DNA of 45,484 bases from Actinomycetota bacterium (GTDB taxonomy: Bacteria; Actinomycetota; Aquicultoria; Aquicultorales; Aquicultoraceae): positions 1 through 45,484 of the forward strand of contig JASEGT010000010.1 of assembly GCA_030018005.1 (NCBI GenBank). Reading direction: 5' to 3'. Under the pieces are notes generated by a model that saw only the letters and a program-made list of their open reading frames with translations, was not told the origin of the DNA and did no database searches. Of this stretch, positions 22,515-45,215 are shown one piece after another; the stretch's first letter is position 1; each line of letters starts with the position of its first letter. The position numbers and the translations under genes are program-made.

Positions 22515-22853
22515 ATGTCGGATGATGTTAATAAAGGAATGCCCGTAGACCTGGACGAAGAAGGGTATCTGATAGACTATCACCAATGGGATGAAGCTAT
22601 CGCTCACGCGTTGGCCGAGAAAGAAGGGGTAGGTGAGCTTACGCCCGACAGGATGGAGATCATCAAGTTCATGCGCACATATTATGAGAAATACAATTAC
22701 TATCCCATTCTGCGCCATGTCTGCAAGAACGTCCATCAAGAGAAGGAATGTATAAACGAGGAGTTCATCGATCCGTTAAAGGCAGTGAAGATAGCGGGGT
22801 TGCCGCAACCGACCGGGGAGGTCGTCGCGTATCTCAAAGATGAAGTCGCATGA
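22515..22853 (+). CDS. DsrC/TusE-family protein lacking the C-terminal redox cysteines
   Basis: A 112-residue protein of the DsrC/TusE fold: VDLDEEGYLIDYHQWDEAIA, GELTPDRMEIIKFMRTYYEK, and IAGLPQPTGE near the end. In DsrC and TusE the last motif reads 'AGLPKPTGCV', whose penultimate Cys carries persulfide. Here that Cys is Glu and the tail extends to VVAYLKDEVA with no cysteine. The only cysteines are Cys70 and Cys79 in the middle. It therefore cannot act as a standard sulfur carrier and resembles the Cys-less, regulatory-type members (RspA-like). GGAGG at 22504-22508 precedes ATG 22515. The gcvH gene follows after 58 bp. Confidence 0.8.
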   Translation: MSDDVNKGMPVDLDEEGYLIDYHQWDEAIAHALAEKEGVGELTPDRMEIIKFMRTYYEKYNYYPILRHVCKNVHQEKECINEEFIDPLKAVKIAGLPQPTGEVVAYLKDEVA

Positions 22854-22911
22854 TTCGCATTTGCACTGCTAAAAGTCCATTAAGGGTTGAGTGACGGAAA
22901 GGAGCCGGCCG

Positions 22912-23292
22912 ATGTCGACGGAAGACCTCTTATTCCACAAAGAGCATAGTTGGGTGCGCGTCGCCAACAGCACTGCCGTTGTCGGAATATCGGATTATGC
23001 GCAGGATATGCTCGGCGATATCGTCTATCTCGATATCCCGGATGCCGGTGAGATGGTTTCGGCAGGCGATGTCATCGGCGAGATTGAATCGGTAAAATCG
23101 ACATCAGACCTATACGCTCCGGTTAGCGGAGAGATCATAGCGACAAACGAAAAGCCGGTAGATACGCCGGAGGTAATCAACGGGGATCCGTATGGCGACG
23201 GCTGGATGTATAAGGTAGAGCTTAGCGACTCCACCGAGCTCGATGCGTTGATGAGCGAAGCCGAGTACGCCGTTTACGTAAAGGGACTGTAG
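22912..23292 (+). CDS. gcvH: Glycine cleavage system H protein / lipoyl carrier
   Basis: A 126-residue lipoyl-domain protein. The N-terminus LLFHKEHSWVRV, the core GISDYAQDMLGDIVYL and the lipoylation motif ESVKST with Lys62 are canonical. H protein shuttles the aminomethyl group between the P, T and L proteins; none of these is encoded here, so a stand-alone lipoyl-carrier role is also possible, and the neighbouring DsrC-like gene recalls sulfur-metabolism gene sets that use an H-like lipoate protein. I chose ATG 22912 with AAAGGAG upstream; a GTG at 22891 would add seven residues. The gene position before garA-like and merR genes mirrors mycobacterial Rv1826-Rv1828. Confidence 0.9.
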   Translation: MSTEDLLFHKEHSWVRVANSTAVVGISDYAQDMLGDIVYLDIPDAGEMVSAGDVIGEIESVKSTSDLYAPVSGEIIATNEKPVDTPEVINGDPYGDGWMYKVELSDSTELDALMSEAEYAVYVKGL

Positions 23293-23549: not shown

Positions 23550-23852
23550 ATGGACAAGAAGAACGAGTTAGACCTAAGTAACGTATTGGTTGACATTTCC
23601 GAAAAATCAGACGAAGAACTTAGAGAAATTCTAGACCAGCTTTGCGGCGAAGAAGAGCGGGTTTCGTTTAGGCGACGGGTGCTCCATGGAAAAATCGATA
23701 TTCTCAAGGCGGAACTCGTCGACAGGATGAAGGCTTCCAGAGAGGGCGGACGAGTCATCTCCGAGGCCGATGTAGACAGGTTGAGCGAGATTCTGGCACG
23801 CGGCTTGACGAGTGTTTCGAAAGTAGACGTCTCTGACGAGGACGCGTTTTAA
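23550..23852 (+). CDS. RsiG-like c-di-GMP motif protein (putative anti-sigma factor)
   Basis: A 100-residue, mostly helical, charged protein. Residues 35-50 read EERVSFRRRVLHGKID, which fits the RsiG signature E(X)3S(X)2R(X)3Q(X)3D at Glu35, Ser39, Arg42 and Asp50, with His46 in place of Gln. In Streptomyces, RsiG holds WhiG-type sigma factor when loaded with c-di-GMP through two such helices; single-motif homologues act as homodimers. Only one motif is present here. The preceding region (SEKSDEELREILDQLCGEE) also resembles RsiG. No sigma factor gene is adjacent. GAGGGA at 23539-23544 precedes ATG 23550. Function is inferred from the motif. Confidence 0.65.
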   Translation: MDKKNELDLSNVLVDISEKSDEELREILDQLCGEEERVSFRRRVLHGKIDILKAELVDRMKASREGGRVISEADVDRLSEILARGLTSVSKVDVSDEDAF

Positions 23853-23943: not shown

Positions 23944-24186
23944 ATGTCAAAATCAAGAATCACCGAGATAATTGAGCAATTCCTTAAAGAAGCCGGCGCG
24001 AATATTCAAGAAGAGCGTTTGACCGAGTATATCGTGAGCGAGACCCGCAAAGGCAGAAAGCTCGGCGAGATACTGGAAGACCCGAACATCAAAGGCAAAA
24101 TCAGCGACGGTCATTTGGCTCACGTTCTGGAACGCAAGGAAGTCTTGCAGGCGTATGAAGATAAGCTTAAAGAGGCTACTAAGTAA
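23944..24186 (+). CDS. Small conserved-looking protein of unknown function
   Basis: An 80-residue soluble, mostly helical protein with no membrane segment and no cysteine. It contains ITEIIEQFLKEAGANIQEER, VSETRKGRKLGEILEDP and a helical tail. AGGAG at 23935-23939 supports ATG 23944; a GTG at 23908 would add 12 unlikely residues. It lies between the RsiG-like gene (92-bp gap) and the FHA gene (39-bp gap) in the same direction, so it may belong to that regulatory group. I do not recognise a family. Confidence 0.65.
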   Translation: MSKSRITEIIEQFLKEAGANIQEERLTEYIVSETRKGRKLGEILEDPNIKGKISDGHLAHVLERKEVLQAYEDKLKEATK

Positions 24187-24225: not shown

Positions 24226-24678
24226 ATGGATTGCGATAAATGCGGTAGCAAAAACGAAATCGGCGATAATGTCTGTCGCCAATGCGGGGAGCTGCTGGTA
24301 TCCGATGCCGAAAAGACGGTCTCCCTTTCGCGAGCCGATTTAGAGCAGGCGCAGGCTGAACTAGAGTTAGCAGTCGAGGACGAACCGGTTTTAGTGGTCA
24401 AAAAAGGCGCCTATGTCGGGCAGAAGTTCAGTCTGACCAAGGACGAGATTACGCTCGGTCGCGATCCCGCCAGCGACATATTTCTGGATGATATCACGAT
24501 ATCCAGGCACCATGCGAAGATAAAGATGAAGCGTAACAGCGTTAGCGTCGCCGATTCCGGAAGCTTGAACGGAACGTATGTCAACCAGGAGCGCATCGAG
24601 GAGCCGACCGTGCTTCACTCAAACGATGAGCTTCAAATCGGCAAGTTTCGGCTGATCTTCATGTCAAAAAAGCATTAG
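24226..24678 (+). CDS. Zinc-ribbon FHA-domain protein, GarA-like
   Basis: A 150-residue protein. Residues 3-20 form a zinc ribbon (CDKC, CRQC). A short segment, EKTVSLSRADLEQ (Thr31), resembles the ETTSVFRADLL phospho-switch of mycobacterial GarA, in which kinase phosphorylation makes the FHA domain bind its own N-terminus. The FHA domain follows (about 55-150) with LGRDPASDIFLDDITISRHH, the SLNGTYVN loop and phosphothreonine-binding Arg, Ser and Asn. GarA controls 2-oxoglutarate and glutamate enzymes. The order gcvH, FHA, merR matches Rv1826-Rv1828, with two extra genes inserted. The zinc ribbon is absent from mycobacterial GarA. The ribosome-binding site is weak (GGTGGG). Confidence 0.85.
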   Translation: MDCDKCGSKNEIGDNVCRQCGELLVSDAEKTVSLSRADLEQAQAELELAVEDEPVLVVKKGAYVGQKFSLTKDEITLGRDPASDIFLDDITISRHHAKIKMKRNSVSVADSGSLNGTYVNQERIEEPTVLHSNDELQIGKFRLIFMSKKH

Positions 24679-24783: not shown

Positions 24784-25491
24784 ATGGCGACAAAGAGAGG
24801 CTATTTAACGATAGGTGAAGTAGTTCAGCAACTGAAACCGCGCTATCCTGACCTTTCAATCAGCAAGATTCGCTACTATGAAGAAGAGAATCTAATCAAG
24901 CCGGAGCGCACGGCGGGAGGGTATCGAAAGTTCTCAAAGGATGATGTCCGCCGGCTAGACTTGGCGCTGCGCCTTCAGAAAGAAAAATACATGCCCCTCA
25001 ACGTTATCAGGCAAAACCTCGATATGATGGACATGGGGCAAGTTACCACCGATATCAGGCAAATCGCGCAGGAGAACAGCGAAGGAGAAATCGGCTCCGA
25101 AACCGCCGGGCCCGTTTCGGCAGAGAAGGCCATCAATAGCATCGGTATCTCCGCGGATGTCGCGAAGATGCTCGAGAATTTCGGGATAATCCAGCCCGTA
25201 AAGACCTCTGAAGGCAAGAGCTATACATCGGCCGATATACGCCTCATGACCATAGCCAGAGAGATGAACAAATACGGCATCGAGCCGCGGCACCTGCGCA
25301 TGTATGCGACGCTGGCCGATAAGGAAGCGGCGCTTTTCCAGCAGATATTGTTACCGATGATTCGCCACAAGAGCGATGATCGAGACCGGCGTATCGCTGA
25401 GGTTCTCGAGATATTGAGTGACCTCTCGGCGCAGATGAAAGCGCTATTACTCAAGAAAAAGCTCGATGATTATATGAGCGACGTAAAATAG
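24784..25491 (+). CDS. MerR-family regulator (Rv1828 type)
   Basis: A 235-residue regulator. Residues about 8-75 are a MerR winged HTH (LTIGEVVQQL, ISKIRYYEEENLIKPERTAGG, RKFSKDDVRRLDL). The second half contains another MerR-like wing region (SEGKSYTSADIRLMTIAREM, GIEPRHLRMYATLAD) as in mycobacterial Rv1828, where it forms the effector-free dimer part. There is no cysteine cluster, so metal sensing is unlikely. I chose ATG 24784 behind GGAGGGAGG; TTG 24766 would run through that site. It follows the FHA gene by 105 bp, as in other actinobacteria, and is followed by a hairpin. Confidence 0.88.
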   Translation: MATKRGYLTIGEVVQQLKPRYPDLSISKIRYYEEENLIKPERTAGGYRKFSKDDVRRLDLALRLQKEKYMPLNVIRQNLDMMDMGQVTTDIRQIAQENSEGEIGSETAGPVSAEKAINSIGISADVAKMLENFGIIQPVKTSEGKSYTSADIRLMTIAREMNKYGIEPRHLRMYATLADKEAALFQQILLPMIRHKSDDRDRRIAEVLEILSDLSAQMKALLLKKKLDDYMSDVK

Positions 25492-26124: not shown

Positions 26125-26622
26125 CTAGTTATCAGATATCACAAGCACCGGTACATCCGTGCTTTTCATAACCGCGTCTACGACACTTCCAAGTGAACGC
26201 TTTATCCCTGATTTTTCCGAGTTACCGATAATAATCAAGTCCGGTCCGTACACCTCCGCATAGTCGGCTATCGTTCTAGCGACTTGCCCTCGGAGCACAC
26301 GTGTCTCTAGGTTCACGTCGTTTTGCTCCGCGTAATTCTTGACCGCGTCCAACACCTCTGCACATCTGCCGACACCCGGCTTACCCTTAAGGTGCTTTTC
26401 AGTTTCCATGTAGGGCGATTCAAGCATCTCATAGTCGCTTTCTACGTAAATCGCTCTTACATCGGCTTCGAAAAACCTAGCCCAAGCTATAGCTTGTTTG
26501 GTTGCCATAATCGATGATTGGGATCCGTCTGTCGCAAGTAGTATCTTTCTTATGTCGATAAATAACTCTTGTACATCAGCTGCCTTCGACGTTGCCGACG
26601 ACTTGTAAAGATTATCTATCAT
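26125..26622 (-). CDS. Universal stress protein (UspA family), first of two
   Basis: A 165-residue single-domain UspA protein. The N-terminal strand ILLATDGSQSSIMATKQAI carries the conserved Asp, and the nucleotide loop IIGNSEKSGIKRSLGSVV keeps the final GS but departs from the ATP motif G2xG9xGS (Lys/Ser where the second Gly should be), so ATP binding is doubtful. An N-terminal extension of about 25 residues precedes the domain. It is followed on the same strand by the structured RNA element and preceded by a paralogue at 26774. Usp proteins respond to starvation, redox and stringent signals; the trigger here is unknown. Confidence 0.9.
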   Translation of the reverse strand: MIDNLYKSSATSKAADVQELFIDIRKILLATDGSQSSIMATKQAIAWARFFEADVRAIYVESDYEMLESPYMETEKHLKGKPGVGRCAEVLDAVKNYAEQNDVNLETRVLRGQVARTIADYAEVYGPDLIIIGNSEKSGIKRSLGSVVDAVMKSTDVPVLVISDN

Positions 26623-26773
26623 TTGGCTCCCTTAGAGTCGCATCGCTTTTCGCAACCATTAAGTGAAAAGCTTGACGTATTTAGCGTAATCCAGAAGTTA
26701 GGCTCGAAACAGTAAAAGTCGGTAAACGGCACAAAGAGTGGCTTAAGCGGAACAATAATGACAGCATGTGGCG

Positions 26774-27256
26774 CTAACTGCCTTTTATTACAAGGACAGG
26801 TATGGCTGAATCCTTGACGACCGCCTCCGACACACTGCCGAGCGCGAGCCGTTTCAGGCCCGTGCGGCCGGTATTTCCTATAATTATAAGATCTGCCTCA
26901 TAATTGGCAGCCGCCTTTATGATGGCCTTTGCAACGTTGCCTTTTACTACCTCGATGTTGTAGTTGACCTTGTTCTTGTCGGCGTAAATCTTCGCGATGG
27001 AGACACCCGCCGTGCTTTGACGCATTTCCTTTGGGGTATCCAACATGACGATGTTTCGCGAATAGTCGTGCTCGTCCTCGCTGGTGTCGACGAAGATTAT
27101 TTTTAAGGACGCGTTGAAGACCTTAGCCAGCGCAATCGCATATTTGGTAGCCATTATGGCAGGAACGGAGCCGTCAGTTGCCAGCAACAACCGTTTCATC
27201 TTGAAATCTACTTCACTGAAATCGCTGCGTGCGCGAACTTCGTCTTGTCTGCCCAT
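26774..27256 (-). CDS. Universal stress protein (UspA family), ATP-binding type
   Basis: A 160-residue UspA protein. The strand LLLATDGSVPAIMATKYAI is followed by a loop GNTGRTGLKRLALGSVSEAV, which fits the ATP-binding pattern G2xG9xGS exactly, unlike its neighbour at 26125. The two proteins share the plan DGS-x-x-x-IMATK and are tandem paralogues, so one may be the ATP-binding and the other the non-binding partner of a heterodimer (inference). A 150-bp spacer separates them. The start ATG 27256 has AGGGAAA upstream on the minus strand. Confidence 0.92.
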   Translation of the reverse strand: MGRQDEVRARSDFSEVDFKMKRLLLATDGSVPAIMATKYAIALAKVFNASLKIIFVDTSEDEHDYSRNIVMLDTPKEMRQSTAGVSIAKIYADKNKVNYNIEVVKGNVAKAIIKAAANYEADLIIIGNTGRTGLKRLALGSVSEAVVKDSAIPVLVIKGS

Positions 27257-27515: not shown

Positions 27516-27599
27516 ACGGGACTGATTTGATAATACCTTTATCGGCTCTTCACCCGCGTCTATTTAGAGTTTATTTGAAAATGATTTGAAAACCGGTCC

Positions 27600-27738: not shown

Positions 27739-28434
27739 CTAGTCTGTTTCATCGCCGCAGAATAATCCCGCGCTTTCGGCATCAGCCTCGGCCGGATTTC
27801 TTCTGTGTTCAAAGTCGACCTGCTCCTGTATAAAGCTCATCAACGTTTCCAGGCTCGCTTCGTCTATTTGAATATATTCAATTCCGACGAGATAATCCCT
27901 AGCGTTAGCGTTGAAGGAAGTGATATGGACGATTTCTCCAATAGCCTTGATGAAACTCCGGCGATCGAGGTTTATAGTCAGGCTTACGTGCGTGCCCACC
28001 GTAAACGCACTCGATGCCTTGACAATCAAGCCGATTCCACCGGCGCTGATATCGTGCAGCTTGAGACGTTTATAGCGGTTTGCGTTGTTTTGCGGACGCA
28101 GCTCTATTTCGAAAGGCACCGATATATCACTGTGGCTTAGGCGGTAGTGCTCGCGTCTTTGAATAAAGCGCGGCTCCGACAGATTGGTCAAGGCGATGAC
28201 TGCACCGCGTTCGCTCGACTCCTTAAGCTGCGACTTGATAATGAACAACCCGCTTTCACTGTTCTTTATTATGAATACACGGAATGTCTCCGGCGTAACA
28301 GGAATAGGTTGCTTGACGGCTCTGCACACTAAGAGCTTGCTATTATTACACATATTGACGACGTACGGTGCGGTCGTGCCGTCGACTTTTAATCTGACTG
28401 CTTGGCCGGGTTGGAGAAGGGTTCCGAGGTCCAA
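27739..28434 (-). CDS. PilZ-domain c-di-GMP receptor, YcgR-like
   Basis: A 231-residue protein with an N-terminal YcgR-N-like beta domain (about 1-88) and a PilZ domain (about 90-215). The c-di-GMP contacts are present: RxxxR at Arg94-Arg98 (RREHYR) and (D/N)xSxxG at Asp128, Ser130 and Gly133 (DISAGG). YcgR-type proteins slow flagellar motors or regulate other outputs when c-di-GMP rises; no flagellar gene is in the window. The start is TTG 28434 with AAAGGAG seven bases upstream. The acidic C-terminus (DFEHRRNPAEADAESAG) is unusual. It lies alone on the minus strand between two terminators and the divergent sortase gene. Confidence 0.9.
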   Translation of the reverse strand: MDLGTLLQPGQAVRLKVDGTTAPYVVNMCNNSKLLVCRAVKQPIPVTPETFRVFIIKNSESGLFIIKSQLKESSERGAVIALTNLSEPRFIQRREHYRLSHSDISVPFEIELRPQNNANRYKRLKLHDISAGGIGLIVKASSAFTVGTHVSLTINLDRRSFIKAIGEIVHITSFNANARDYLVGIEYIQIDEASLETLMSFIQEQVDFEHRRNPAEADAESAGLFCGDETD

Positions 28435-28751
28435 TTAAAGCTCCTTTGCCGAACAGAGCGGCGCCAATACTCATCAAATGTATCGGCTTGCTAAATTTGC
28501 GGCTTAAGGTATATCGCGCTTGTGTGACTACCGAGAACTTCATGGTTAAAGGATATGTTTATCGGTGCGCAATAGCTCTGGGCCGAAACCAGACAGAGCA
28601 ATTTGCTCTGTAAAACCACTCTCCAAGCGATGTATAATATGTTTACGGAGCGATTTGGGTAAGTTTTCGGGGCGCCGCAATCGGTTTAATTAACGACGTC
28701 GCAAGGCGGTAGACATAATGCGCAGGAACCGGCGCCATTAAGAGGATACGC
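28435..28751. other. Divergent intergenic region between PilZ and sortase genes
   Basis: No gene is seen in these 317 bp. It holds a perfect 8-bp palindrome, ACAGAGCA-ATT-TGCTCTGT, at 28593-28611 that could be an operator. A TATAAT-like box lies near 28632, without a well-spaced -35. A GGCGCCG/CGGCGCC inverted repeat (near 28670 and 28730) brackets the 60 bp before the sortase start. Confidence 0.4.
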
Positions 28752-42583: not shown

Positions 42584-42830
42584 TAAGAGAATCTGGCTCT
42601 GCCTTGTACGTGGATCGTAGTGTATATTTGAGCCAACACTATTACATAGGGAGATTAACTCTGCCGGCAGCACAAACGCCCTCTTGATTAGGGACTTGTA
42701 AAGCGGACAGGCAATCACCCACCTGCGTGCGCGCGGGCTTCAATATGTATTTCGGGAAGCGGCAAGGCGGAGCTCCTTATAACAACATAACGATAACTTA
42801 TTAAACACCGGGTTTAGGCCTGGTGTTTTG
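42584..42830 (+). ncRNA. ssrS: 6S RNA (SsrS-type) candidate downstream of aspS
   Basis: The region has its own promoter and a strong terminator but no reading frame. A 12-bp stem pairs GGCTCTGCCTTG (42595-42606) with CAAGGCGGAGCT (42763-42774), enclosing about 155 nt, the size and closed-stem form of 6S RNA, which binds the housekeeping RNA polymerase. TTTGAGCCAACAC near 42628-42640 and a later GGGA resemble firmicute 6S sequences as I recall them. In bacilli a 6S gene also lies next to aspS. The 5' end is set from the promoter and the mature 3' end may be near 42785. A family model search would settle it. Confidence 0.6.
42804..42830 (+). terminator. Intrinsic terminator of the 6S-like RNA
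   Basis: AACACCGGG (42804-42812) pairs with CCTGGTGTT (42819-42827), with one G-T pair, around TTTAGG and is followed by TTGC, so that the arm itself ends in TTTT. It lies about 50 bp beyond the closing stem of the RNA. Confidence 0.7.
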
Positions 42831-43040
42831 CTATTCCGCACGACTACTTTTGCAGGTATTATCCCTCAAGCAACCGACAGCCTTAATACTATTAATAAGC
42901 GCGCTAAAACGGTCTGTCATAAGCGGTAATAATTAAAGTCCATTATCTTTAAGCCGATACAATAACCACTAATTGTGCAGGCAGACGTTATAGCGAGGAA
43001 TATTATCACATGAAAAGCTATATCAGCAACATAAAAAAGC

Positions 43041-45215
43041 ATGCAGACTTTACCTAAAACTATAGTAATCTCAGGCTTTGCGCTTGTAGCAGCGTTTGTA
43101 ATAATGGAGCTAGCTCATGGCAAGGGCTTACTCTTTATCACAGGTACTAAAATAGTTGACATCACACTAATCGCATTGTACGCGCTAGTTGTCGCAAATG
43201 CTGCGATATCAACGTTCTTTGCGGCCAGAATGAGCACTAATTACAGGCGTATGTGGAAACTGCTGACCGTAGGCATGCTCTTATGGCTTGTGGGGATCAT
43301 TGTGTTGCTCGCCTATGTGATGATGCCAACATACCCTCACATACCTTCACCTTCGTTAGCAGACGTCTTTGCCATAGCATATTTACCGATTATGCTAGGC
43401 GTTGTGTTGAGCGTGGCGAAGCTCAGACGTCCCCTAGATACGCGGAAAAAACAGTTCATAGCAAACATTTCGATGGCGATAATGGCAATGTTTCTACTCT
43501 GTTTTGAGTTCGTTTTGCTGCCATTATGGCACGCAAATTCACACGAAAGCCTATCTAATCGAATGTTTGCTATAGCATACCCGATGCTAGATTGGATTAT
43601 CTTCTCCGTCCTGCTTTTTGCGTCTCATAGGCTTAAGGAAGATCAGATCAACGGCTGGATAGTACTCTTGCTTTCGGCTTTTGGTTTAAGCGTTACGTCC
43701 AACATGCCCACCATAATAACCGGAATCGCATTGAACAAAATTGAAGTGCTTTTGTTGGTTCTTACAGCTTATCTCATATCGCTCTCGGCTGTCGATGAAG
43801 TACATGGCTCGCTCATTGGAATCAAAGAAAGAAAAAGCAAGAAGGCACATAAAAATCAGCTCGCACACACAATAGACGAATCAAATTTAGATACATACAT
43901 AGTACCGTTCGCTTCGGCAGTCGTTATACCGGCTGTATGGCTGCATCATTCAAATAGCGGTCTAATAGGCGGGGATATTCTGATATTCGCAATATCAATG
44001 GCTATTTTGGTAATTGCGATACAAAGAAATCATAGATTAGCAATTGACAATGCAAAACTATTTGCCACATCCATGCGTGACCGTCTAACTGGATTAAGTA
44101 ACCATCGTTATTACCAAGAGAGTCTCTGTAGATTGATAGCAAAAGCGAAGCGAACAAAAAAGCCGTTGTCATTACTGCTCATCGATGTTGATGATTTTTC
44201 CAAGGTTAATAACAAATATGGGCATGCTTACGGTGATGCGGTGCTTATGTTAATCGGCAAAACAATTCTCGCTAATGCTAGCGAAGAGAACGAGACGTGC
44301 AGGCTTAGTGGCGACGAGTTTGCATTCCTTATGCCGAATACGAGTCAGGCTGAAGCGCTGATTCGGGCTGAGGTTATCAAAAAGCAGATATACAGGAAAA
44401 TGAATGAAACATTAGAAAAGGGAAGCATAACAGTCTCGATGGGATTGAGTACATATCCATCTGTCGCCGACGATAAGATACGGCTGCAGAATACAGCGGA
44501 AGGCGCGCTTTATTGGTGTAAGTTGCACGGTAAAGACTCGATTCTGCTCTATGATTCTGCGGTCGTTGAGTCATTAAGCCCCGAAGACCGGGCAAAGAAA
44601 GCGGAAGAGGTAGCACTTGTCGATTTGGTTACAAGTCTTGCACTTGCGGTCGACGCGAGAGACTCATATACGAGATTGCACTCAAAAGGCGTGAGCGTGC
44701 TTTCAAAGCGTTTGGCTATTAGGCTAGGTCTAAGCATACAGCAAGCGAGCAGAATCGAGATAGCCGGTCTCCTACATGATGTGGGAAAAATCGGAATTTC
44801 TGATGAGATATTGAATAAGCCGGGCCGTTTGACTGAAGAAGAGATGTTAACCATTAAGAACCATTCGATAATCAGTGCTCAAATCATCGATTCGACCAGC
44901 CTTAAGGATATCGTACCCGCCATAAGATATCACCATGAACGCTGGGACGGCAACGGTTATCCTGACGGTCTCAAGAACGACGATATACCGCTAGAAGCAA
45001 GAATAATCGCATTAGCCGACACATTTGACGCAATGACGACAGATAGACCGTATCGCAAGGCATTGCCGATCGCCGATGCGGTCAATGAGATCAAACGATG
45101 CGCGGGGACGCAATTTGACCCCGAATTAGCCGCAGAGTTTGTACTTGTTATCGAAGAACTGGTGCTAGAAGAGGAAAATGCTGACTTACAGAAAACGATA
45201 ATAAAAGTTGGTTAA
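43041..45215 (+). CDS. Membrane GGDEF and HD-GYP dual-domain c-di-GMP signalling protein
   Basis: A 724-residue protein. About nine to ten hydrophobic segments fill residues 8-332, an integral sensor region that I do not match to a named MASE domain. The GGDEF domain (about 345-505) has RDRLTGLSNHRYY at its start and SGDEF (near 424) as active-site loop; the inhibitory RxxD site is absent. The HD-GYP domain (about 525-715) keeps LLHDVGKIGI, HHERWDGNGYPDGL and the GYP loop, so it should cleave c-di-GMP. Whether synthesis, degradation or both operate is unknown. No clear ribosome-binding site precedes ATG 43041. Codon use is more AT-rich than in neighbouring housekeeping genes. Confidence 0.9.
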   Translation: MQTLPKTIVISGFALVAAFVIMELAHGKGLLFITGTKIVDITLIALYALVVANAAISTFFAARMSTNYRRMWKLLTVGMLLWLVGIIVLLAYVMMPTYPHIPSPSLADVFAIAYLPIMLGVVLSVAKLRRPLDTRKKQFIANISMAIMAMFLLCFEFVLLPLWHANSHESLSNRMFAIAYPMLDWIIFSVLLFASHRLKEDQINGWIVLLLSAFGLSVTSNMPTIITGIALNKIEVLLLVLTAYLISLSAVDEVHGSLIGIKERKSKKAHKNQLAHTIDESNLDTYIVPFASAVVIPAVWLHHSNSGLIGGDILIFAISMAILVIAIQRNHRLAIDNAKLFATSMRDRLTGLSNHRYYQESLCRLIAKAKRTKKPLSLLLIDVDDFSKVNNKYGHAYGDAVLMLIGKTILANASEENETCRLSGDEFAFLMPNTSQAEALIRAEVIKKQIYRKMNETLEKGSITVSMGLSTYPSVADDKIRLQNTAEGALYWCKLHGKDSILLYDSAVVESLSPEDRAKKAEEVALVDLVTSLALAVDARDSYTRLHSKGVSVLSKRLAIRLGLSIQQASRIEIAGLLHDVGKIGISDEILNKPGRLTEEEMLTIKNHSIISAQIIDSTSLKDIVPAIRYHHERWDGNGYPDGLKNDDIPLEARIIALADTFDAMTTDRPYRKALPIADAVNEIKRCAGTQFDPELAAEFVLVIEELVLEEENADLQKTIIKVG

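What the first reader, a model, noticed from the sequence alone, without database searches (positions are those of the whole stretch)
23550..23852. RsiG-like protein with an altered c-di-GMP signature beside GarA-type genes
Residues 35-50 match the RsiG motif E(X)3S(X)2R(X)3Q(X)3D at four of five positions, with His46 in place of Gln. Only one motif copy is present, as expected for a homodimeric ancestral form. It sits in the gcvH-FHA-merR cluster, which would place a c-di-GMP-dependent anti-sigma switch next to a phosphorylation-controlled metabolic switch. The motif is seen; the function is inferred from the RsiG-WhiG system of actinobacteria.
Basis: partly seen in the sequence, partly recalled or inferred. 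Interest (0 to 1): 0.62.

Follow-up and report, generated by a model that had tools for sequence, protein, structure and literature searches.

The report
Single-motif RsiG in garA–ftsR operon
The 100-residue protein is a genuine RsiG, a small switch protein that uses the messenger c-di-GMP to hold the sigma factor WhiG inactive; its histidine variant is a normal, already tested form, but its place beside the metabolic regulator GarA and the cell-division regulator FtsR proves to be an ancient gene arrangement, found at every evaluable single-motif RsiG locus examined, for which we found no published description.

Summary
Window 23550-23852 encodes a single-motif RsiG: Pfam PF22802 3.4e-17, 62 bits against a cut-off of 27, with phmmer hits to the Streptomyces and Rubrobacter RsiG crystal structures. 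The 'altered' His46 is an ordinary variant: the RsiG literature writes the motif [Q/H], and the His-type RsiG of Conexibacter woesei binds c-di-GMP in vitro (PMC8325347). The genome (a Candidatus Aquicultor relative) has a WhiG, closest to S. venezuelae WhiG, that keeps the c-di-GMP-contacting K/G/R, and 14 GGDEF domains. It also has a flagellum and enriched sigma28/WhiG-type promoters, including before motA, a type IV pilin and chemoreceptor genes. The most likely role is a c-di-GMP-armed anti-sigma on a motility/pilus/c-di-GMP regulon.

What is new is the context. In 79 of 79 evaluable named loci, and 18 of 18 in a family-spread sample, single-motif rsiG lies directly upstream of garA-ftsR. 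This includes the gene 117/118 identical to the crystallised Rubrobacter protein. Start/stop overlaps occur in several lineages. None of 20 twin-motif loci of the canonical (Streptomyces-type) architecture in that sample is linked. A small uncharacterised helical protein often sits between. I found no published report of this linkage. Its functional meaning is untested.

The parts
22891..23292 (+). gcvH, glycine cleavage H protein
   Evidence: PF01597 E=1.5e-41
23550..23852 (+). rsiG, single-motif c-di-GMP-dependent anti-sigma; motif E35-S39-R42-H46-D50
   Evidence: PF22802 E=3.4e-17; PDB 6pfj/7lq2-4; motif invariant in A1; AF2 helix 21-65 and C-terminal helix 72-83
23944..24186 (+). uncharacterised small all-helical protein (EERxxxYxxxE..xGR..DPYV.NR family), often between rsiG and garA
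   Evidence: in 47 of 80 rsiG loci, A2, no convincing Pfam/NCBIfam hit; AF2 pLDDT 80, no PDB fold match; 27 of 31 genomes with it have it beside rsiG
24226..24678 (+). garA/odhI-like FHA protein with N-terminal zinc ribbon
   Evidence: PF00498 E=1.7e-21; NF041660 OdhI E=2.2e-35 but below its equivalog cut-off
24784..25491 (+). ftsR, MerR-family regulator
   Evidence: NF050798 FtsR 207.5 bits, cut-off 150; start ATG 24784 after GGAGGGAGG
26125..27256 (-). two universal stress protein genes, convergent with the rsiG cluster
   Evidence: 26774-27256 PF00582 E=1.9e-26; pair conserved in the family
27539..27566 (-). perfect sigma28/WhiG-type promoter-like site TAAA-N16-GCCGATAA before the usp genes
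   Evidence: equivalent site with 0-1 mismatch in 6 of 7 family genomes with the usp pair
27739..28434 (-). PilZ-domain protein (possible c-di-GMP receptor)
   Evidence: PF07238 E=2.1e-13; weak site TAAG-N15-GCCGATAC at 28480-28506 (-)
42934..42960 (+). sigma28/WhiG-type promoter-like site (1 mismatch)
   Evidence: intergenic, 80 nt before the GGDEF-HD gene
43041..45215 (+). GGDEF plus HD-GYP-like (HD_5) c-di-GMP turnover enzyme, predicted WhiG-type target
   Evidence: PF00990 E=1.9e-33, PF13487 E=1.5e-36

Best explanation
The protein is a bona fide RsiG of the ancestral single-motif kind. When c-di-GMP is high, two RsiG subunits form an antiparallel coiled coil, bind a c-di-GMP dimer through their two E-S-R-H-D motifs, and sequester the WhiG sigma factor encoded elsewhere in the genome. 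When c-di-GMP falls, WhiG is released and transcribes genes with TAAA/GCCGATAA promoters, here most likely motility, chemotaxis, type IV pilin and c-di-GMP turnover genes. The gene is expressed from one ancient operon with garA and ftsR. Shown here: family membership, intact motif, WhiG with c-di-GMP-contact residues, enriched WhiG-type promoters before motility genes, conserved gene order. Inferred: the binding events, the direction of control, that WhiG rather than an undetected FliA uses these promoters, that the gene order is one transcript, and any functional coupling to GarA/FtsR.
For: PF22802 over cut-off; PDB RsiG hits; all five motif positions invariant; His-type RsiG of C. woesei binds c-di-GMP, Kd 25 uM alone and 1.7 uM with WhiG (PMC8325347). 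WhiG gene between an xerC-like recombinase and rpsB, E=1.4e-89 to S. venezuelae WhiG against 1.8e-47 for the best FliA, with K37/G41/R42 matching Sv K57/G61/R62; N31 matches Rr WhiG N47 and RsiG D15 matches Rr D39, partners in the Rubrobacter complex (positions read). RsiG and WhiG co-occur: 50 of 52 against 3 of 8, Fisher p=2e-4, not corrected for phylogeny. 14 GGDEF domains. TAAAN14-16GCCGATA 127 against 32 control matches in 4 genomes; intergenic sites before motA, type IV pilin, chemoreceptor and GGDEF-HD genes, and a further site before a cheY-type gene. Gene order: 79/79 and 18/18 loci, start/stop overlaps.
Against: No binding or expression data for this protein. The RsiG dimer could not be modelled, and Foldseek with the monomer model did not recover 7lq2-4. 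The flagellar promoters could also be read by a separate FliA: 8 of the 10 genomes of the same family have a 45%-identical second sigma28 factor, not found in this genome, which may be assembly loss. The WhiG sigma4 contacts known in Rubrobacter could not be tested.
Confidence: 0.87

Rival explanations
1. RsiG homologue that has lost c-di-GMP control because His replaces Gln, acting as a c-di-GMP-independent anti-sigma.
For: One motif residue differs from the Streptomyces/Rubrobacter form.
Against: His is frequent in RsiGs and a His-type single-motif RsiG binds c-di-GMP specifically (PMC8325347); His is invariant in the 16-sequence alignment and common in the family-spread sample.
Confidence: 0.04
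2. RsiG here acts mainly on partners encoded in its operon (GarA, FtsR or the small helical protein), with c-di-GMP modulating metabolism or division rather than a sigma factor.
For: Gene adjacency retained in every evaluable single-motif lineage sampled, with start/stop overlap in several; one in-frame rsiG-garA frame in G226.
Against: WhiG is present with contact residues and co-occurs with RsiG; the crystallised Rubrobacter protein, whose near-identical gene lies in this operon, binds WhiG. The G226 fusion may be bypassed by an internal TTG start with a strong Shine-Dalgarno.
Confidence: 0.07
3. Operon neighbours are retained only for shared expression (growth-phase co-regulation); RsiG and GarA/FtsR have no mechanistic link.
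For: garA-ftsR is already known as a conserved actinobacterial cluster with variable upstream genes (PMC6683498); garA-ftsR is known in lineages without single-motif RsiG, and canonical twin-motif RsiGs are unlinked.
Against: Persistence over many families and classes and the stop/start overlaps suggest selection for stoichiometry or coupling, though not for contact.
Confidence: 0.6

Closest known systems
Rubrobacter radiotolerans (RsiG)2-(c-di-GMP)2-WhiG switch (PDB 7lq2-7lq4; PMC8325347)
   Same: Small single-motif RsiG, same helix layout predicted, WhiG partner with c-di-GMP-contact residues, type IV pilus/DGC-type predicted regulon; the near-identical gene (117/118, G084) also lies immediately upstream of GarA-FtsR.
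   Different: His instead of Gln; flagellum present; an extra small gene between rsiG and garA; no biochemical data.
Conexibacter woesei RsiG (His-type, single motif)
   Same: Same motif E-S-R-H-D; shown to bind c-di-GMP and WhiG; a Conexibacter locus (L121) shows rsiG-garA-ftsR.
   Different: Different class (Thermoleophilia), no intervening small gene found.
Streptomyces venezuelae RsiG-WhiG (PDB 6pfj)
   Same: Same family, motif and sigma partner type.
   Different: Twin-motif monomer, controls sporulation; twin-motif genes of this architecture were not linked to garA-ftsR in the sample.
odhI/garA-ftsR-nuclease-merR cluster of Actinobacteria (PMC6683498)
   Same: garA followed by ftsR.
   Different: That report says the upstream region varies and does not name RsiG in the passages read; here rsiG (with or without the small gene) precedes it.

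Membership tests
RsiG (PF22802), single-motif form | profile match above curated cut-off | tested here: met
   62.3 bits, cut-off 27
RsiG (PF22802), single-motif form | motif E(X)3S(X)2R(X)3[Q/H](X)3D | tested here: met
   E35 S39 R42 H46 D50
RsiG (PF22802), single-motif form | only one motif, length about 80-120 aa | tested here: met
   100 aa, one PF22802 stretch
RsiG (PF22802), single-motif form | long helix carrying the motif plus short C-terminal helix; antiparallel homodimer | tested here: inconclusive
   AF2 monomer: helix 21-65 and 72-83, pLDDT above 90 in the core; dimer not computable here
RsiG (PF22802), single-motif form | cognate WhiG in the genome with K/G/R c-di-GMP contacts | tested here: met
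   L003 ORF, K37/G41/R42
RsiG (PF22802), single-motif form | binds c-di-GMP and WhiG | not testable with these tools
   needs purified proteins
WhiG sigma (the 261-aa gene at C22) | closer to WhiG than to FliA | tested here: met
   E=1.4e-89 (6pfj_A) against 1.8e-47 (FliA 9wsf)
GarA/OdhI (24226-24678) | FHA domain | tested here: met
   PF00498 1.7e-21
GarA/OdhI (24226-24678) | OdhI equivalog score | tested here: not met
   121 bits, cut-off 200; hence called GarA-like, with an added zinc ribbon
GarA/OdhI (24226-24678) | N-terminal phospho-threonine switch controlling 2-oxoglutarate metabolism | not tested
   an EKTVSLS stretch is present before the FHA domain; kinase and targets not examined
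FtsR (24784-25491) | NCBIfam FtsR model above cut-off | tested here: met
   207.5 bits, cut-off 150

The most novel reading that the evidence does not exclude
rsiG, garA and ftsR form an ancestral actinobacterial regulatory operon in which the c-di-GMP/WhiG switch, the Ser/Thr-kinase-controlled GarA switch and the FtsR division regulator are functionally coupled (co-translation or direct contact, perhaps via the unknown small helical protein), so that c-di-GMP and nutrient signals are integrated; RsiG left this operon when it was internally duplicated and took over sporulation in Streptomyces-type actinobacteria.
Probability: 0.3. Interest if true: 0.8.

Novelty: new member of a known kind. 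Interest (0 to 1): 0.52.

Why it matters
It extends single-motif RsiG from the five genomes in the 2021 report (Rubrobacteria, Thermoleophilia) to Aquicultoria, Coriobacteriia and other deep actinobacterial lineages. It shows that these RsiGs, including the locus of the crystallised Rubrobacter protein, sit beside garA-ftsR. FtsR's signal is unknown and its link to GarA was already suspected (PMC6683498). A conserved c-di-GMP-dependent anti-sigma in the same gene cluster gives a concrete, testable hypothesis on how division, central metabolism and the motile-sessile decision may be tied together.

Tried and rejected
Weak NCBIfam MshE-like c-di-GMP-motif hit of the small ORF (E=0.0019): not reproduced in four relatives, so taken as chance. 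Foldseek of the RsiG monomer model against PDB: no significant match, not even 7lq2-4, uninformative for a single long helix. Foldseek of the small protein: best E 1.2. c-di-GMP riboswitch in the operon or before the usp genes: none at gathering threshold in Rfam; only a 6S RNA. Sigma70 promoters and terminators in the operon: at chance level. Two-mismatch genome scan for WhiG promoters: too noisy (446 against 274 control), so only 0-1 mismatch sites were used for gene assignment. Literature search for RsiG with GarA/FHA: no relevant paper.

Full report
Observation. The ORF at 23550-23852 is real: ATG start with a plausible ribosome-binding site, a Pfam RsiG match far above cut-off, and phmmer matches to the solved RsiG chains of Streptomyces venezuelae and Rubrobacter radiotolerans. 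The motif residues E35, S39, R42, H46 and D50 are invariant among 16 diverse relatives. It is the only PF22802 match in the genome.

The 'altered' residue. The 2021 PNAS study of RsiG evolution (PMC8325347) states that Gln is frequently replaced by His, writes the motif with [Q/H], and shows that the His-type single-motif RsiG of Conexibacter woesei binds c-di-GMP (Kd 25 uM alone, 1.7 uM with WhiG). His46 is therefore not an anomaly.

Partner. The genome, whose closest named match is Candidatus Aquicultor (L043 RsiG 99% identical), encodes a 261-aa sigma factor between an xerC-like recombinase and rpsB. It is closer to Streptomyces WhiG (E=1.4e-89) than to any FliA in the PDB (1.8e-47) and keeps the K/G/R residues that contact c-di-GMP (K37, G41, R42; compare). 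RsiG D15 and WhiG N31 also correspond to a contacting pair in the Rubrobacter complex (positions read from the alignments). Across 60 relatives, 50 of 52 RsiG-positive genomes have a WhiG-type match and 3 of 8 RsiG-negative ones do. This is not corrected for shared ancestry, and the two exceptions are 74-79% complete.

Likely regulon. Fourteen GGDEF domains, flagellins and a flagellar/chemotaxis cluster are present. The pattern TAAAN14-16GCCGATA is enriched over its reversed control in four genomes (127 against 32). Intergenic near-consensus sites lie before motA, a type IV pilin gene, a chemoreceptor gene, a Tll0287-HAMP gene and, inside the window at 42934-42960, a GGDEF-HD gene; two further sites, overlapped only by other small reading frames, lie before a cheY-type gene and a second Tll0287-HAMP gene. 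This resembles the pilus/DGC regulon predicted for Rubrobacter WhiG. Caveat: 8 of the 10 genomes of the same family have a second, FliA-like sigma factor not found in this genome, so which sigma reads the flagellar promoters is inferred.

Genomic context. In 80 named loci retrieved with the motif pattern RR[VI]LHG[KR]ID, which selects His-type RsiGs, 79 have FHA(GarA-like) and FtsR genes directly downstream on the same strand; the 80th contig ends 470 bases after rsiG. That sample is limited to the 80 best of 272 matches. I therefore drew loci from a phylum-wide sample in which 193 of 297 genomes have RsiG. All 18 true single-motif loci, including Gln-type ones, are linked to garA-ftsR, and none of 20 canonical twin-motif loci is. 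G084's RsiG is 117/118 identical to the crystallised R. radiotolerans protein, so the solved system itself lies in this cluster. In several lineages the rsiG stop overlaps the garA start (L201, L202, L203, L217). In G226 the two genes form one open frame, though an internal TTG with a strong Shine-Dalgarno may give separate GarA. The FtsR paper reports the conserved odhI/garA-ftsR cluster but a variable upstream region; I found no paper describing RsiG there, within an open-access library that lacks most subscription journals, and without access to supplements.

The small gene. Between rsiG and garA lies a conserved ~86-aa helical protein (EERxxxY...GR...DPYV.NR) without a convincing Pfam or NCBIfam match in its relatives or PDB fold match. 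In 27 of 31 genomes that have it, it is next to rsiG.

Verdict. The protein is a known kind in a new lineage. The unexpected part is the ancient rsiG-garA-ftsR linkage. A mechanistic coupling is possible but untested; shared expression alone is also compatible.

Noticed in passing
L239 (G016), L240 (G018), L241 (G027): Twin-motif RsiGs of the window's own class; the two with enough downstream sequence (L239, L240) are linked to the small gene-garA-ftsR. In all three the motif order is reversed (weaker copy N-terminal, strong copy C-terminal), unlike Streptomyces-type RsiG. This suggests a second, independent internal duplication; the half-domain tree is too short to prove it.
   Followed up: partly
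L213 1429-2241 (G226): rsiG and garA in one open reading frame without a stop between; possible RsiG-GarA fusion, or internal TTG start for GarA.
   Followed up: partly
window 42593-42777 (+): 6S RNA (Rfam RF00013, 91.6 bits) shortly upstream of the GGDEF-HD gene and its WhiG-type promoter.
   Followed up: no
window 27539-27566 (-): Perfect sigma28/WhiG-type site before a universal stress protein pair convergent to the rsiG operon, with 0-1 mismatch sites at the equivalent place in 6 of 7 family genomes holding the pair, this genome included.
   Followed up: partly
window 28480-28506 (-): Two-mismatch WhiG-type site about 45 nt before a PilZ-domain gene; could be chance.
   Followed up: no
G092 contig C1, G136 contig C2: Five and six PF22802 matches per genome, suggesting several RsiG paralogues.
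   Followed up: no
G059:C45:2085-2654, G045:C1:388762-388980: Distant copies of the small helical protein away from rsiG in Rubrobacter-like genomes, a tandem pair in G059.
   Followed up: no
window 22515-22853 (+): DsrC-like gene directly upstream of gcvH (PF04358 E=2.1e-22); among the sampled named loci it is seen only in the Aquicultor one.
   Followed up: no
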